A DNA stretch of 64,000 bases from Yimella sp. cx-51. GTDB lineage: Bacteria; Actinomycetota; Actinomycetes; Actinomycetales; Dermatophilaceae. The notes beneath the pieces are model-generated. The model had not been told where the DNA came from, did not search any database, and saw only the letters and a program-made list of their open reading frames with translations. Below, piece by piece: positions 50,543 to 57,019 of this stretch. Position numbers and translations under genes: made by a program. The DNA lies in assembly GCF_017654605.1 (NCBI RefSeq), contig NZ_CP072113.1, positions 558,001 through 622,000 on the forward strand. Direction: 5' to 3'. How positions within the stretch are numbered: the stretch's first letter is position 1; each line of letters starts with the position of its first letter.

Positions 50543-50651
50543 CACCACTGGGCGGGCCCACGGGCGCTTCACGCTCTTCACATTCAAGTTACCCAGCAGA
50601 CTGTACGAGCGTTCAAGTTCGCCTGATTTCTCTGCGGCCCCTGGAGTGCCC

Positions 50652-51944
50652 ATGCCCTACGTACGCCGTACCGCCGCGCTCGCCGCAGCACTCGCCCTCA
50701 TGGCCACTGCCACTCCGGCAGAAGCTGCCGTCTCCCGTGGTGTCGTCATCCCGGCCTTCTACGACGTCCCCGCTTCGCTGCCCGCGGCCAACGGTGCGAT
50801 CGTGCGCAGCCAGCCGATGACCATCGCGTGGTGGCTGCCCGGCATCCTCTCCTCCTTGCCGGCCAAGGCCACCCGCGTCATGTACAAGACCACTGACTCG
50901 ACCGGCGCTCCGGCCGGCGTGACCGGCGCCTACCTGGAGCCGAAGACCGCCTGGAGCGGGCCTGGTCCTCGTCCGCTCGTCGTGCTCTCGCCCGGCACCC
51001 AGGGTCAGGGTGACCAGTGCGCACCGAGCATGGGTCTGGAGCGCCCGATCACTGTGACCGGCGAGACGTTCACGATCGGCTACGAGAACATCGCGATGAA
51101 CAAGCTGCTGTCCAAGGGGGTCGCCGTCATGGTGACCGACTACGTCGGACTCGGCGCTACCGACCGCCTGCACACCTACGTCAACAGGATCGACCAGGGT
51201 CACGCCGCACTCGACGCCGCGCGAGCTGCTCGCTCCGTGCCCGGTGCCACCGTCACGGCTCAGAGCAAGGTCGGCCTTTACGGCTACAGCCAGGGTGGCG
51301 GATCGACTGCCTCCGCAGCAGAACTGCAACCTACGTACGCACCCGATGTGCAACTGGCCGGCGCGGCAGCAGGAGCACCCCCGGCCGACCTCAAGGAGAC
51401 CCTCAAGGGCATCGACGGCAGTGCCATCGCCGGTGCCGCCGGGTGGTCGCTCAACGGGTTCGTGCAGGCATACCCGCAGTTGCGTCCGTACGTCGATGCC
51501 GAGACCAATGCTGCCGGCAAGGCGGCCCTGAAGGATCTGTCGACGATGTGCACGGGCGACATCATCTTCAAGTACCCCTTCGCCAAGAGTTCTTCGTGGA
51601 CCGTGAGCGGGAAGCCGATGTCCGCAGTGATTGACGCCAACCCGGCGGTGGGCGCTGTGCTCGACCAGCAGCGCCTGGGCCGTCTGCGCCCGACCGCGCC
51701 GGTGCGGGTGAGCACCGGTGTCGTCGACGACATCGTTCCGCACGCCCAGGCCCGGCAGCTCGCCGTCGACTGGTGCGCGCGTGGCGCGAATGTCACCTAC
51801 GTGCCGGTTCCTGGCCTCAACCTCGGCAACAAGACCGTGCTCAACCACGTCACGCCGATGATCAAGGACCTCGACCCGGCCACGACCTGGCTGATGGACC
51901 GCTTCGCCGCAAAGCCCATCGCCACCAACTGCGGCACGGTCTGA
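50652..51944 (+). CDS. Secreted lipase of the LIP (secretory lipase) family
   Basis: An exported protein of about 430 residues. The signal peptide (AALAAALALMATATPAEA) is followed by a mature alpha/beta hydrolase. PLVVLSPGTQGQGDQCAPS and VTDYVGLGATDRLHTYVN are characteristic of the LIP family. The nucleophile elbow is VGLYGYSQGGGSTA (Ser at about residue 216), the acid is likely in VDDIVPHAQ and the His near LNHVTPM. Two TTCAAGTT direct repeats (50583-50590, 50612-50619) upstream may be regulatory. It is the first of four lipid-related genes. Confidence 0.88.
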   Translation: MPYVRRTAALAAALALMATATPAEAAVSRGVVIPAFYDVPASLPAANGAIVRSQPMTIAWWLPGILSSLPAKATRVMYKTTDSTGAPAGVTGAYLEPKTAWSGPGPRPLVVLSPGTQGQGDQCAPSMGLERPITVTGETFTIGYENIAMNKLLSKGVAVMVTDYVGLGATDRLHTYVNRIDQGHAALDAARAARSVPGATVTAQSKVGLYGYSQGGGSTASAAELQPTYAPDVQLAGAAAGAPPADLKETLKGIDGSAIAGAAGWSLNGFVQAYPQLRPYVDAETNAAGKAALKDLSTMCTGDIIFKYPFAKSSSWTVSGKPMSAVIDANPAVGAVLDQQRLGRLRPTAPVRVSTGVVDDIVPHAQARQLAVDWCARGANVTYVPVPGLNLGNKTVLNHVTPMIKDLDPATTWLMDRFAAKPIATNCGTV

Positions 51945-51997
51945 CCGGCCACGTTCGTACGCCGTTCTCGCCGCTATCCGGCGACGAAAACGGCAAG

Positions 51998-52861
51998 ATG
52001 GGAACCGTGGAGACAGAAGCGACCACCCCGGACGACGTGTCCGCATCGTTCCGCGCCTCGGCTGCGGACCTGCTGGCGCGGGCTCCGTCCGCGGTGCGCC
52101 TCGCCACGGAATTCCCACGCGCCGCTCTCGGAGTACAGCTGATGCTGGCGTCCGTGCCCCTGCTGCCGAAAACGGCAGTAGGGGACGGGCATCCGGTGCT
52201 GGTGCTGCCGGGGCTTTCGGCGAACGACACCTCGACGCTCGCGCTGCGGCAGTTCCTACGGCTGCGTGGGTTCCGGCCGTACGCGTGGCATCTTGGCCGC
52301 AATGTCGGACCGACCGCCGCGGTACGCGCCGAACTGCCGGTCGCGCTGCAGCGCATTGCGCGTCGCAACCGGTCGAAGGTGTCGATCATCGGCTGGAGCC
52401 TGGGCGGCATCTACGCCCGCCAACTGGCCCACGAATTCCCCGACTCGGTACGGCAGGTGATCACCCTCGCCACTCCCTACCGGCTGCAGCGTTTCGACCA
52501 GTCGCGCGCCGATTCGATCTACACCCGTTTCAGGCACCTGCACGCCGTCGACGAAACGCAGACGACGGCCACCGGCCGCAGCGCCTTCCCACTGAGCGTG
52601 CCGACCACCTCCATCTACTCGCGGGAGGACGGCATCGTTGCCTGGCAGCACTGCATCGAACCTCCGACCGACCACTCCGAGAACATCAGGGTCTGTTCGA
52701 GCCATCTCTCGATCGGGTTCGACCCCCACGTCCTCTTCGCGATCGCCGATCGCCTCGCGCAACCCGAAGGAGACTGGCAGCCCTTCCGGCCCCCGAGTCT
52801 CCTGCGCCCCTTCTTCCCCCGTCCCGACAACCCACATGGAGCAGCCGATGTCGTCGCTTGA
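51998..52861 (+). CDS. Alpha/beta hydrolase (esterase/lipase, PGAP1-like)
   Basis: A 287-residue hydrolase without a signal peptide. VLVLPGLSANDTSTLALRQF is the oxyanion-region strand/turn and SIIGWSLGGIYARQLAHEFP holds the nucleophile Ser in GWSLGG (about residue 132). VTTLATPY-type sequence (ITLATPYRL) and SIYSREDGIVAW supply the acid region; the likely His is in SSHLSIGFDP. The start could be ATG 51998 or GTG 52007. The end overlaps the next hydrolase by 14 nt. It probably acts on acylglycerols together with its neighbours. Confidence 0.85.
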   Translation: MGTVETEATTPDDVSASFRASAADLLARAPSAVRLATEFPRAALGVQLMLASVPLLPKTAVGDGHPVLVLPGLSANDTSTLALRQFLRLRGFRPYAWHLGRNVGPTAAVRAELPVALQRIARRNRSKVSIIGWSLGGIYARQLAHEFPDSVRQVITLATPYRLQRFDQSRADSIYTRFRHLHAVDETQTTATGRSAFPLSVPTTSIYSREDGIVAWQHCIEPPTDHSENIRVCSSHLSIGFDPHVLFAIADRLAQPEGDWQPFRPPSLLRPFFPRPDNPHGAADVVA

Positions 52862-53780
52862 CACCTCCCTTCCGCAGTTGGCGCAGAAGTGGGGTGGTGA
52901 ATATCGATCGATCGATCTCGACGGTCCCGTTGCCTACATCGACTTCGGCGGACCCTCCGACGCGGTGCCCTTCGTGTTGGTGCACGGGCTCGGCGGCATG
53001 GCGCTCAACTACGTGCTCCTCGCGCCGTACCTGCGCGAGGCCGGCTACCGCGTCTACGCAGTCGATCTTGCCGGGCACGGTCTGACCCGGGCGGTCGAAC
53101 GCAGTTCGTCGGTGCGCAACAACGCCAAACTCGTGCGCCAGTTCATCGAGGAGGTCCTCGGCGAGCCCGCCGTCGTTGCCGGCAACTCCATGGGCGGGCT
53201 CATCGTCTCGATGCTCGCCTCCACCCACCCGGACGCCGTGCGTGGCGTGGTGCTGCTCAACCCCGCCATGCCGGCCCCGCGGCGCTACCCCGGGCGCCAA
53301 CTCGCCTCCCTCCGATCGCTCATCACGCCGGCGGCGCGCGGCGTCGTGGGCAAGGCCCGCAAGCGTCCGATCACGCCGGAGGCGGAGATCGAGCACACCA
53401 TGCGCCTCTGCTTCGCCGACTGGACCATCCGCGACCAGGAGATGTTCGACGCCCATGTCGACATGGCCAAGGCGCGGCGCAGGTTTCCCGAAGCCTTGGC
53501 AGCCCTCGGCGTCGCTGCGCGCACGATGTTCCAGGAGACAATCGCTCACCGCGCCGTCATGGACCGCTACCACCGCATCAAGGCACCGGTGCTGCTGATC
53601 CACGGCACGCACGACCGGCTGGTCGACATCGAGGCGGCGCGCTGGGCGAAGAAGGGCAACCCGCGCTGGCTCTACGCCGAGTGGGACGACACAGGGCACG
53701 TGCCGATGATGGAACACCCCGAACGCACCGCCAAGACCATGCTCTCCTGGGTGGAGTCGCACGGCATACTCGCTGCATGA
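52848..53780 (+). CDS. Alpha/beta hydrolase
   Basis: A 310-residue classical alpha/beta hydrolase. VLVHGLGGMALNYVLLAPYL is the HG oxyanion motif, VVAGNSMGGLIVSMLASTHP the nucleophile elbow (Ser at about 111), HGTHDRLVDIEAARW the acid region and DDTGHVPMMEHPE the catalytic His (about 292). The ATG at 52848 has a GGAGCAG ribosome site inside the previous gene; ATG 52836 is also possible. It is coupled to the WS/DGAT gene by an ATGA overlap. A monoacylglycerol or other acyl lipid substrate is likely from context. Confidence 0.88.
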   Translation: MSSLDTSLPQLAQKWGGEYRSIDLDGPVAYIDFGGPSDAVPFVLVHGLGGMALNYVLLAPYLREAGYRVYAVDLAGHGLTRAVERSSSVRNNAKLVRQFIEEVLGEPAVVAGNSMGGLIVSMLASTHPDAVRGVVLLNPAMPAPRRYPGRQLASLRSLITPAARGVVGKARKRPITPEAEIEHTMRLCFADWTIRDQEMFDAHVDMAKARRRFPEALAALGVAARTMFQETIAHRAVMDRYHRIKAPVLLIHGTHDRLVDIEAARWAKKGNPRWLYAEWDDTGHVPMMEHPERTAKTMLSWVESHGILAA

Positions 53781-55201
53781 AGCAACTCTCGCCGATGGAT
53801 TCGGCGTTCCTGGCTCTCGAGACGGCCACCATGACCGGCAACATCAGCAGCCTGTTGATTCTCGATCCCAGCGACGTCGACGGCAAGTTCGACCTGGCGC
53901 GTTTAACCTCGTTCGTGGCGACCCGGATCGAACGCGTGCCGGTCTTCCGGCAGCGGCTGGCGACCGTGCCGCTCGGGCTCGACCGGCCGTACTGGGTCGA
54001 TGACGACCGGTTCGACCTGTCGTACCACGTGCGCGAGAGTGCCCTGCCGTCTCCGGGTGAGATGAGCCAACTTCTCGAACTCGTGGGACGACTGCAGGAG
54101 CGTCCCCTCGACATGAGCCGTCCGCTCTGGGAGACCTACCTGATCACCGGTCTGCCTGACGACCGCGTGGCGATCTTCACCAAGACCCACCACGTCGTCA
54201 TCGACGGGATGTCAGGCATGGAGGTGCTGGGCGCCCTGATCGACCTCGACCCGGACGCTCCGGCCGGTGAGGCGGCGGTCTTCGAGCCGCGATCGGCGCC
54301 CTCCGGCGCAGGCATGGTGGCACGCTCGCTGGTGCACCTGGCCGGACGGCCCGGGGACGCGTGGACCATCGCCACCGGGCTGGCCCGCTGGCTACCGGGA
54401 CTTGTTGCCCTTACCGCCGCGAAACCGCGAAATCCGTTGCAGCGCAAACCTTCCCAGCAGAGTCAGGCAGGAGACTCGTTGCCGGTTCGCACGCCGGTCA
54501 CCTCTTTCAACGCGAAGATCTCGCGGCGCCGCCGCGTCGGGGTGACCGACCTGCCGCTCGCTGATATCAAGCAGGTGAAGACAGCCTTCGGCACATCGGT
54601 CAACGACGTCGTGATGGCCGTTGTCGCCGGGGCGCTGCGACGCTGGCTGCTGCACGACGGCGGAGTGTTGTCGCAGCCGTTGGTGGCGATGGTGCCGGTC
54701 GCGGTGCACTCACCCGATCGTTCGACGCAGGGCAACTACGTGACCGCGATGTTGGCGACGCTGCCCACCCATCTGGACGACCCGCTGCGCCGGCTGAAGC
54801 GCAGCAGCAAGTTCAGCAAGGCCGCCAAGCGCAGCGGGGGAGCGGTACCACCGAACGTCCTGGTGTCGGCGATGGAGTTCGCGCCGCCGATGATCCTCGG
54901 CGCGGCGAGCCGGGCTGTCTGGGACGGCGGGCTCTTCCGGGCGATGCGGCCCTTCAACCTGGTGATCTCCAACGTCCCGGGCGGCACCCAGGACGTCTAC
55001 CTCGCCGGTGCCCGGTTGGAACGCATGTATCCGGTCTCCGTCGTCGCGGACGGCATGGGCATGAATGTGACCCTGCTCGGGCACAAGGACACCTTGCATC
55101 TTGGCATCACGACGTGTCCTGAACTCGTGCCTGATCCGCAGCAGATCTGCGACTGGGCCCGCGAAGAACTGCAGTTGCTGCTCGAGGCATCGACGGCGTA
55201 A
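53777..55201 (+). CDS. Wax ester synthase/acyl-CoA:diacylglycerol acyltransferase
   Basis: A 474-residue WS/DGAT enzyme that makes triacylglycerol or wax esters from acyl-CoA. The N-terminus MKQLSPMDSAFLALETATM is standard. KTHHVVIDGMSGMEVL carries the HHxxxDG active site (about residues 138-144). GTSVNDVVMAVVAGALRRWL and the NLVISNVPG motif near residue 395 (FNLVISNVPGGTQDVYLAGA) confirm the family. It overlaps the upstream hydrolase by 4 nt, so a lipid-making and a lipid-cleaving enzyme are co-expressed, suggesting storage-lipid turnover. Confidence 0.94.
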   Translation: MKQLSPMDSAFLALETATMTGNISSLLILDPSDVDGKFDLARLTSFVATRIERVPVFRQRLATVPLGLDRPYWVDDDRFDLSYHVRESALPSPGEMSQLLELVGRLQERPLDMSRPLWETYLITGLPDDRVAIFTKTHHVVIDGMSGMEVLGALIDLDPDAPAGEAAVFEPRSAPSGAGMVARSLVHLAGRPGDAWTIATGLARWLPGLVALTAAKPRNPLQRKPSQQSQAGDSLPVRTPVTSFNAKISRRRRVGVTDLPLADIKQVKTAFGTSVNDVVMAVVAGALRRWLLHDGGVLSQPLVAMVPVAVHSPDRSTQGNYVTAMLATLPTHLDDPLRRLKRSSKFSKAAKRSGGAVPPNVLVSAMEFAPPMILGAASRAVWDGGLFRAMRPFNLVISNVPGGTQDVYLAGARLERMYPVSVVADGMGMNVTLLGHKDTLHLGITTCPELVPDPQQICDWAREELQLLLEASTA

Positions 55202-55262
55202 CCCGTAGCTCAGGTCGGCCGGTTGCCTTGTCCGGAGGGTGATGCCTGACATGCTGCACTCA

Positions 55263-57019
55263 TGCATTTCATCGGTGTCGATCTGGCCTGGGGCGAGAAG
55301 AGCCGCACCGGCGTCGCCGTCATCGACGATCACGGTGTGCTGCAACATCTTTCGTCGGTGATCACTGACGAGGAGATCGCAGCAGCGGTCACGCCTTATC
55401 TCTCCGACTGGGCGGTTGCGGGCATCGATGCTCCTTTGGTGGTCACGAACGAGACGGGCACTCGTCGGGCAGAGAAGCTGCTCAACCACGACTTCGCGAA
55501 GTTCGACGCGGGAGCGCACCCGGCCAACCGCACCAACCCGGCATTCACCGAGCGTCCTCGAGGTGCCCGGGTCTGTGCCTTGTTGGGGTTCGCCATCGAC
55601 CCGTCATCCAGCGCTCCGCGACGCGCAGTCGAGGTCTACCCACACGCCGCCACGGTGGCGTTGTTCCGCCTCGGCCGCACGCTGAAGTACAAGAACAAGC
55701 AGGGGCGCTCGGTCGACGACATGCGCACCGAATTGCTCGCCCTGACCCGGCTGGTGGAATCGCTGTCGTCCGCCCAACCCGCGGCGCACGTCGCGCTGAA
55801 CACCGAGTGGCGTGAGTTGGTCGCTTCCATCGAGGGGGCGTCGCGCAAGTCGCAGTTGCGGATGGCCGAGGACCAGGTCGATGCCGTCATCTGTGCCTAT
55901 GTCGTCTATTACCGCGAGCACCGCCCAACCGATGTCGTCACCTACGGGCAATATCCGGACGGCTACATCGTCACCCCGCGCCTGCCGGCTGATCTCGTGC
56001 CCTCGCCCCGACCACCGCGTGCAGCCCAACACGTCGAGGTGGTGCGTCGCGCGACCCGGCGTTACGCCGGCACCTACCCCCTCCTGCGTCGGGCGGCGGA
56101 CGAGGCGAGCGCCGTGGTCGTCGGCATCCTCGACGAAGCCGGCCTGAACTATCTGAGCGTCACCGGGCGGGCCAAGTCGATCGAGTCGTTCGCCGAGAAG
56201 GCCGGACGAATGGCTGACGGAGTGCCGCTCTACGCCGACCCGATCGCACAGATCGGCGACACCATCGGGCTGCGCGTCATCACCTACGTCCACAGTGACG
56301 TTGCCGCCGTGGCGCAACTGCTGGCGTCCGAGGCCGAGGTGCTCGACGACCGCGACATGGGGCAGGAGACCGCCAGCGAAGGACGCTTCGGGTACGCCAG
56401 CCGGCACCTGCAGATCCGTTTGGCCCCGGCGGATCAGGCCGTGCACCCGGCGGTGGGTGATCGTCCGGTGCAGGTGCAGATCCGCACGGTGCTGCAGCAC
56501 GCGTGGGCGGAGTTCGAGCACGACATCCGTTACAAGGGAACGGTGCCCGACGAATACCGTTCCGACTTCGACCGCCGGTTCAGCCTGGCTGCGGGTCTGC
56601 TCGAACTCGCCGATCAAGAGTTCTCCACGATCCGCGAACGCCTGCGCAGCGGGGTCCACGAGGTGCCCGAGGCGCAGCCCGAGGAAGACCCGCGGATCAG
56701 CCCGCGCGAGCTGGCAGCGTTCCTGGCCGGTCAGTACGCCGACTCCAGTTGGTCGCGTCCGGAGCACTACGCCTGGATCGCCGGGCTCGTGCTCGAGCTG
56801 GGCATCACCTCGCTGGCGGAGCTGGCGGAGTCGATCCGGGCGGTCGACATGTCGGTGATCGATCACCGCATGGGTTATCGCAGCGTGCCGGGTGCTGTAC
56901 GCCGACTGGACGACGCCCTGCTGGTCGCGCACGGTGAGCGATACATTGCGCTGCACGACAATGCGCATCGGGTTGACCGGTTGAAGGCTCGACTGGTCAA
57001 GATGACCAAAGCCGCCTGA
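55263..57019 (+). CDS. DUF429 domain fused to a RelA/SpoT-type (p)ppGpp synthetase domain
   Basis: A 585-residue two-domain protein. Residues 1 to about 240 match DUF429, an RNase H-like fold (FIGVDLAWGEKSRTGVAVI with the first Asp; AVAGIDAPL; AEDQVDAVICAYVVYY with the closing Asp). Residues about 260-430 are a small-alarmone-synthetase-like domain: RAKSIESFAEKAGR (about 302), DTIGLRVITYV (about 336), GRFGYASRHLQIRL (about 374) and VQVQIRTVLQHAWAEFEHDI followed by RYKG (about 400-423). No hydrolase domain is present. The glutamate normal in the E-x-Q-I-R-T motif is Gln (CAG) here, so activity may be altered. A helical C-terminal region follows. Confidence 0.88.

What the first reader, a model, noticed from the sequence alone, without database searches (positions are those of the whole stretch)
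55263..57019. Fusion of an RNase H-fold DUF429 domain to a RelA/SpoT synthetase with a changed catalytic residue
One gene joins DUF429 (predicted nuclease-like fold) to a small alarmone synthetase domain with no hydrolase. Most synthetase motifs are intact, but the glutamate of the usual ExQIRT motif is Gln. Some single-domain synthetases act as toxins that make ppApp or modify tRNA. A nuclease-fold partner on the same chain suggests a signalling, RNA-processing or abortive-defence function not yet described.
Basis: partly seen in the sequence, partly recalled or inferred. Interest (0 to 1): 0.8.

Follow-up and report, generated by a model that had tools for sequence, protein, structure and literature searches.

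The report
RelZ-type RNase H–alarmone synthetase fusion
This gene is an actinobacterial version of the already described mycobacterial stress enzyme RelZ, which joins an RNase H-like domain to a small alarmone synthetase; its one odd feature, a missing 'catalytic' glutamate, is shared by the whole RelZ group, which includes a lineage reported to be active.

Summary
The gene (window 55262-57019, +, 585 aa) encodes an N-terminal DUF429 domain with an RNase H-like fold and a C-terminal RelQ-like small alarmone synthetase. The ExQIRT glutamate is Gln (Q404), and it is not shifted. The architecture is known: "actRel with DUF429" (2011) and MS_RHII-RSD/RelZ of Mycobacterium smegmatis (2012 onward), reported to cleave RNA:DNA hybrids and R-loops and to make pGpp, ppGpp and pppGpp. 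The fusion is common in Actinomycetes: the best 80 of 460 related genome loci are all fusions, and 90 of 297 Mycobacterium genomes carry one. There is no conserved neighbour, no room for an antitoxin and no defence-type neighbour. What is less obvious is the missing glutamate. None of 135 fusions keeps it (Q 78, S 47, A 9, T 1), nor do 17 close standalone relatives, while 30 other small synthetases all have Glu. The mycobacterial orthologues checked, about 40, carry Ser. The change is therefore clade-wide and sits in a lineage reported to be active, which makes a decayed or retargeted toxin unlikely. It may relate to RelZ's reported Mg-independent activity and GMP preference; that link is untested. 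Best reading: a RelZ orthologue.

The parts
55262..57019 (+). Whole fusion gene, 585 aa: DUF429 plus RelA/SpoT synthetase plus C-terminal helical extension (RelZ/actRel type)
   Evidence: full-length relatives
55262..55999 (+). DUF429 domain (aa 1-246), RNase H-like fold; invariant or near-invariant acidic residues D7, D56, E124, E203, D204, D207
   Evidence: Pfam PF04250 E 3e-25; PADLOC PDC-S44 E 1.6e-77; AF2 pLDDT 95.4; Foldseek TEFM, phage terminase nuclease, Rv2228c RNase H, Spt6, all at low TM; conservation
56159..56536 (+). RelA_SpoT synthetase core (about aa 300-425); RelQ-like
   Evidence: Pfam PF04607 E 3.3e-15; best PDB match B. subtilis SAS1/RelQ 5dec
56471..56473 (+). Codon of Q404, which takes the place of the Glu of ExQIRT; Q, S, A or T in all fusions
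   Evidence: alignment to RelQ
56684..57016 (+). Conserved C-terminal helical extension (about aa 475-585; ...GAVRRLDDALL...), no Pfam match
   Evidence: a similar tail is seen in Glu-bearing standalone synthetases L102 and L103

Best explanation
The gene is a RelZ-type (actRel subgroup) dual-domain small alarmone synthetase. By orthology, the DUF429/RNase H-like domain cleaves RNA in RNA:DNA hybrids and R-loops. The synthetase domain moves pyrophosphate from ATP to the 3'-OH of guanine nucleotides (GMP, GDP, GTP; pGpp favoured in M. smegmatis RelZ), giving a low-level alarmone signal linked to replication/transcription stress. The cell's bifunctional long Rel can remove the product. The Glu of ExQIRT is genuinely absent in this clade, so the enzyme would have to hold Mg-ATP with the remaining invariant Asp (D333) and basic residues. 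Shown here: the anatomy, clade membership, conservation of every other motif, and lack of a partner gene. Shown by others for M. smegmatis RelZ: both activities, hexamer, inhibition by ssRNA and pppGpp. Inferred: that this orthologue does the same, and that loss of the Glu changes metal or donor handling rather than abolishing catalysis.
For: Domain hits. End-to-end relatives, 54-72% identical, in Dermacoccaceae, Nocardioides, Geodermatophilaceae, Kineosporiaceae and Mycobacterium. RelZ/MS_RHII-RSD described as exactly this architecture, with RNase H, R-loop and pGpp/(p)ppGpp synthetase activity and DUF429 named as the domain. Mycobacterial fusions group with the window protein in one starred clade. 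Catalytic motifs other than the Glu are invariant. The synthetase model matches RelQ/RelP structures. The own genome has one long Rel-type protein and one true RNase HII.
Against: No biochemistry exists for this protein; identity to mycobacterial orthologues is only about 55%. The M. smegmatis RelZ sequence itself could not be fetched, so its residue at this position is inferred from about 40 mycobacterial orthologues. The RelZ activities come largely from one laboratory. Glu at this position coordinates Mg in SaRelP, so its loss could in principle inactivate the enzyme. DUF429 can be lost while the synthetase is kept, so the two functions are not inseparable in this group.
Confidence: 0.83

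Rival explanations
1. Pseudo-synthetase: with the Glu gone, the domain no longer makes alarmones and serves as a nucleotide or RNA sensor that regulates the RNase H-like domain.
For: The Glu is a Mg ligand in SaRelP and is kept by all 30 other small synthetases examined. The M. tuberculosis SAS Rv1366 is reported inactive.
Against: All other catalytic and substrate-binding motifs are invariant. Standalone synthetases of the same clade persist without DUF429, so the synthetase is kept for its own sake. RelZ, in the same clade, is reported active, and mycobacterial orthologues carry Ser here.
Confidence: 0.1
2. Toxin or abortive-defence effector: a toxSAS-like enzyme that makes (p)ppApp or pyrophosphorylates tRNA, with the nuclease-fold half as sensor or second effector.
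For: The DUF429 half matches PADLOC candidate defence model PDC-S44 at 1.6e-77 and the synthetase weakly matches PDC-S33. CapRel appears among Foldseek hits.
Against: No antitoxin: 60-bp gap upstream, about 155 bp downstream, no conserved flanking ORF in close relatives. Neighbours are lipid and envelope genes. Best structural match is RelQ (2.7e-9) rather than CapRel (7.6e-6). FaRel2 uses the Glu missing here for adenine binding. PDC-S44 is only an unproven candidate.
Confidence: 0.05
3. The Glu-to-Gln change is a strain-specific mutation or sequencing error.
For: None found.
Against: None of 135 fusions and none of 17 close standalone relatives has Glu.
Confidence: 0.01

Closest known systems
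RelZ / MS_RHII-RSD (MSMEG_5849) of Mycobacterium smegmatis
   Same: N-terminal DUF429 plus C-terminal small alarmone synthetase in one chain of similar size; mycobacterial orthologues fall in the same clade, and those examined also lack the ExQIRT Glu.
   Different: About 55% identity to mycobacterial orthologues; Gln rather than Ser at the Glu position; no activity shown for this protein; different gene neighbourhood.
actRel subgroup of small alarmone synthetases (Atkinson 2011), including RelS of C. glutamicum
   Same: Actinobacterial small synthetase; the subgroup was defined as including members with DUF429.
   Different: RelS has no DUF429. actRel appears heterogeneous: Glu-bearing standalone relatives such as L102 branch outside the Glu-less clade.
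RelQ/SAS1 (YjbM)
   Same: Closest solved fold and sequence for the synthetase domain; shared RxK, D, GY, QIR and EH motifs.
   Different: RelQ is single-domain and has the Glu; about 25% identity.
RNase HII (PF01351)
   Same: RelZ is reported to have RNase HII-type activity.
   Different: The domain is DUF429, placed with RuvC/YqgF-type RNase H-like proteins; no PF01351 match. The genome has a separate true RNase HII.

Membership tests
RelZ/actRel with DUF429 | DUF429 N-terminal and RelA_SpoT C-terminal in one ORF | tested here: met
   intact ORF
RelZ/actRel with DUF429 | Groups with mycobacterial fusions to the exclusion of other small synthetases | tested here: met
   71-row clade of fusions and near relatives, support 97/93, all Glu-bearing rows outside
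RelZ/actRel with DUF429 | RNase H activity and pGpp/(p)ppGpp synthesis | not testable with these tools
   Reported for M. smegmatis RelZ
Active RSH pyrophosphotransferase | RxK, catalytic Asp, G-loop Tyr, QIR and EH motifs | tested here: met
Active RSH pyrophosphotransferase | Glu of ExQIRT | tested here: not met
   Q404; absent in the whole clade
toxSAS (FaRel, PhRel, CapRel) | Adjacent or fused antitoxin | tested here: not met
   no antitoxin-type domain in the Pfam scan
toxSAS (FaRel, PhRel, CapRel) | Toxicity, or tRNA or adenosine 3'-pyrophosphorylation | not testable with these tools
   No assay possible
RNase HII (PF01351) | Match to the RNase HII family model | tested here: not met
   Only DUF429 passes in 46 members
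RNase H-like superfamily (DUF429, clade D of Majorek 2014) | RNase H-like fold with conserved acidic residues | tested here: met
   fold matches are weak in TM score (about 0.4)
PADLOC PDC-S44 candidate | Profile match | tested here: met
   E 1.6e-77 over aa 1-244; the candidate itself has no shown function that I could find

The most novel reading that the evidence does not exclude
The RelZ clade is a natural family of pyrophosphotransferases that has dispensed with the second acidic ligand (the ExQIRT Glu) regarded as part of the catalytic site. It would work with a single Asp ligand, which would account for RelZ's reported Mg-independent activity and unusual GMP preference.
Probability: 0.35. 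Interest if true: 0.5.

Novelty: new member of a known kind. Interest (0 to 1): 0.3.

Why it matters
It extends RelZ from environmental mycobacteria to a broad set of Actinomycetes. It also shows that a residue treated as catalytic in alarmone synthetases is absent from an entire, apparently functional clade. That gives a sharp test of what the Glu does: metal binding, donor-base recognition or acceptor choice. It also shows that DUF429 was probably lost several times while the synthetase was kept, so the two activities are separable in evolution.

Tried and rejected
Shifted-Glu idea: rejected; alignment to RelQ has no gap beside the motif and no acidic residue lies close by. Strain-specific mutation: rejected. 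Compensating new acidic residue: E417, D363, D421 and D437 are enriched in the Glu-less clade, but E417 is already present in about a third of Glu-bearing proteins, so it is not a clear replacement. Toxin-antitoxin partner: none found. Conserved operon or defence island: no neighbour cluster is shared with the window; neighbours are ordinary. M. smegmatis itself was sought through its porin MspA but was not identified with certainty; a near relative with a porin 99% identical to MspA has the fusion with Ser. The two primary RelZ papers looked up by identifier (2012, 2020) are not in the library, so their results are cited through reviews. A sequence-profile search of PDB with DUF429 found nothing credible.

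Full report
WHAT IS THERE. The gene runs from 55262 to 57019 on the + strand and encodes 585 residues. Pfam gives DUF429 at residues 5-217 (E 3e-25) and RelA_SpoT at 302-426 (E 3.3e-15), and nothing else, so there is no hydrolase domain. NCBIfam finds the RelQ/YjbM synthetase model below its cut-off. The gene is intact and single-copy in a complete 3.2-Mb actinobacterial genome. That genome also has one long Rel-type protein (768-aa frame, 153 bits for RelA_SpoT) and one conventional RNase HII. The start in the finding is one base late.

THE CHANGED RESIDUE. The motif is PVQVQIRT. Against solved RelQ proteins (VEIQIRT) the Gln stands exactly opposite the Glu. By constant offset from His190/H420, Q404 corresponds to Glu174 of S. 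aureus RelP, which with Asp107 coordinates the Mg of bound ATP analogue (the numbering match is my inference). In FaRel2 the equivalent E145 hydrogen-bonds the adenine amino group (position inferred from the E-x-Q spacing). So this residue is expected to act on the donor side. In 81 fusion proteins (the window and 80 loci) none has Glu: Q 62, A 9, S 9, T 1. In a wider set, 135 fusions have Q 78, S 47, A 9, T 1; 17 close standalone relatives have S 16, Q 1; and 30 other actinobacterial small synthetases all have E. About 40 mycobacterial fusions were read and all have Ser. The maximum-likelihood tree puts all Glu-bearing rows on one side of a supported branch (97/93) and all Glu-less rows on the other. 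Every other motif residue is invariant. The substitution is therefore ancestral to the clade, and it varies among Q, S, A and T, which suggests that the site has lost a strict role rather than gained a new one.

THE DUF429 HALF. Majorek and colleagues placed DUF429 in the RNase H-like superfamily, clade D with RuvC/YqgF-type proteins, and noted the RelA/SpoT combination in Actinobacteria. The model of residues 1-246 is of high confidence (pLDDT 95.4, pTM 0.93). Foldseek gives weak but consistent matches to RNase H-like or resolvase-like folds: TEFM, a phage terminase nuclease, the RNase H domain of Rv2228c and Spt6 (TM about 0.4). Acidic residues D7, E124, E203, D204 and D207 are invariant and D56 nearly so, as expected of an active metal-dependent nuclease. 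It is not a member of the RNase HII sequence family, although the literature calls the domain RNase HII by activity.

DISTRIBUTION AND HISTORY. 460 relatives were found in the genome collection, and the best 80 are all full-length fusions, from Dermacoccaceae, Nocardioidaceae, Geodermatophilaceae, Kineosporiaceae, Georgenia, Cellulomonas, Mycobacterium and others. The fusion occurs in 90 of 297 sampled Mycobacterium genomes. In the window's own family 60 of 100 genomes have a relative; about 16 are fusions and most of the rest are standalone synthetases. A genome of the same genus has a standalone synthetase 72-74% identical to the window's, starting just after the DUF429 boundary and keeping the Gln. 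On the tree the fused state needs five changes, at least three of them forced by well-supported branches. DUF429 has therefore probably been lost repeatedly, and the synthetase is maintained on its own.

CONTEXT. Neighbours are a wax-ester synthase/DGAT, alpha/beta hydrolases and a secretory lipase upstream, and a PGA_cap protein and an AI-2E transporter downstream. No gene family in the window's flanks is shared with other loci, and no ORF of 35 aa or more in the 1.5-kb flanks is conserved in 16 close relatives. This speaks against a toxin-antitoxin pair or a defence operon. The remaining defence lead is that the DUF429 half strongly matches PADLOC's candidate model PDC-S44, for which I found only one passing literature mention.

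WHAT IS KNOWN. Atkinson 2011 reported DUF429 at the N-terminus of some actRel proteins, M. smegmatis included. MS_RHII-RSD, renamed RelZ, is reported to cleave RNA:DNA hybrids and R-loops; to make pGpp, ppGpp and pppGpp with preference GMP > GDP > GTP; to be a hexamer; to need both domains in one chain; to be inhibited by ssRNA and pppGpp; and to be induced by UV. [quoted passage not shown] glutamicum deviate slightly from ExQIRT. I found no text in the open library that points out that the RelZ clade lacks this Glu; absence from that library is not proof that it was never noticed.

VERDICT. This is a RelZ orthologue: a new member of a known kind. The likely mechanism is R-loop removal plus low-level alarmone synthesis under replication/transcription stress, inferred by orthology. 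The clade-wide missing Glu is a real and testable point about alarmone synthetase chemistry. Linking it to Mg independence or GMP preference is a hypothesis.

Noticed in passing
window 55262-55999 (aa 1-244): DUF429 half matches PADLOC candidate defence model PDC-S44 at E 1.6e-77, although the context shows no sign of defence; the candidate may partly reflect RelZ-type or standalone DUF429 proteins.
   Followed up: partly
L186 (same genus, G863): Closest relative of the synthetase half (72-74% identity, Gln kept) is a standalone protein that begins just after the DUF429 boundary, suggesting a recent clean loss of the nuclease domain.
   Followed up: partly
G850, G832, G845, G882, G884: Genomes of the same family that carry a standalone RelZ-type synthetase and, elsewhere, a separate DUF429 protein about 40% identical.
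   Followed up: no
L093-L101: Several Mycobacterium genomes have a standalone DUF429 protein about 50% identical to the fused domain.
   Followed up: no
window 56684-57016 (aa 475-585): Strongly conserved C-terminal helical extension without any Pfam match; a similar tail occurs in some Glu-bearing standalone synthetases (L102, L103).
   Followed up: partly
window 50646-55201: Run of same-strand lipid-type genes upstream: secretory lipase, two alpha/beta hydrolases and a wax-ester synthase/DGAT, ending 60 bp before the fusion gene.
   Followed up: no
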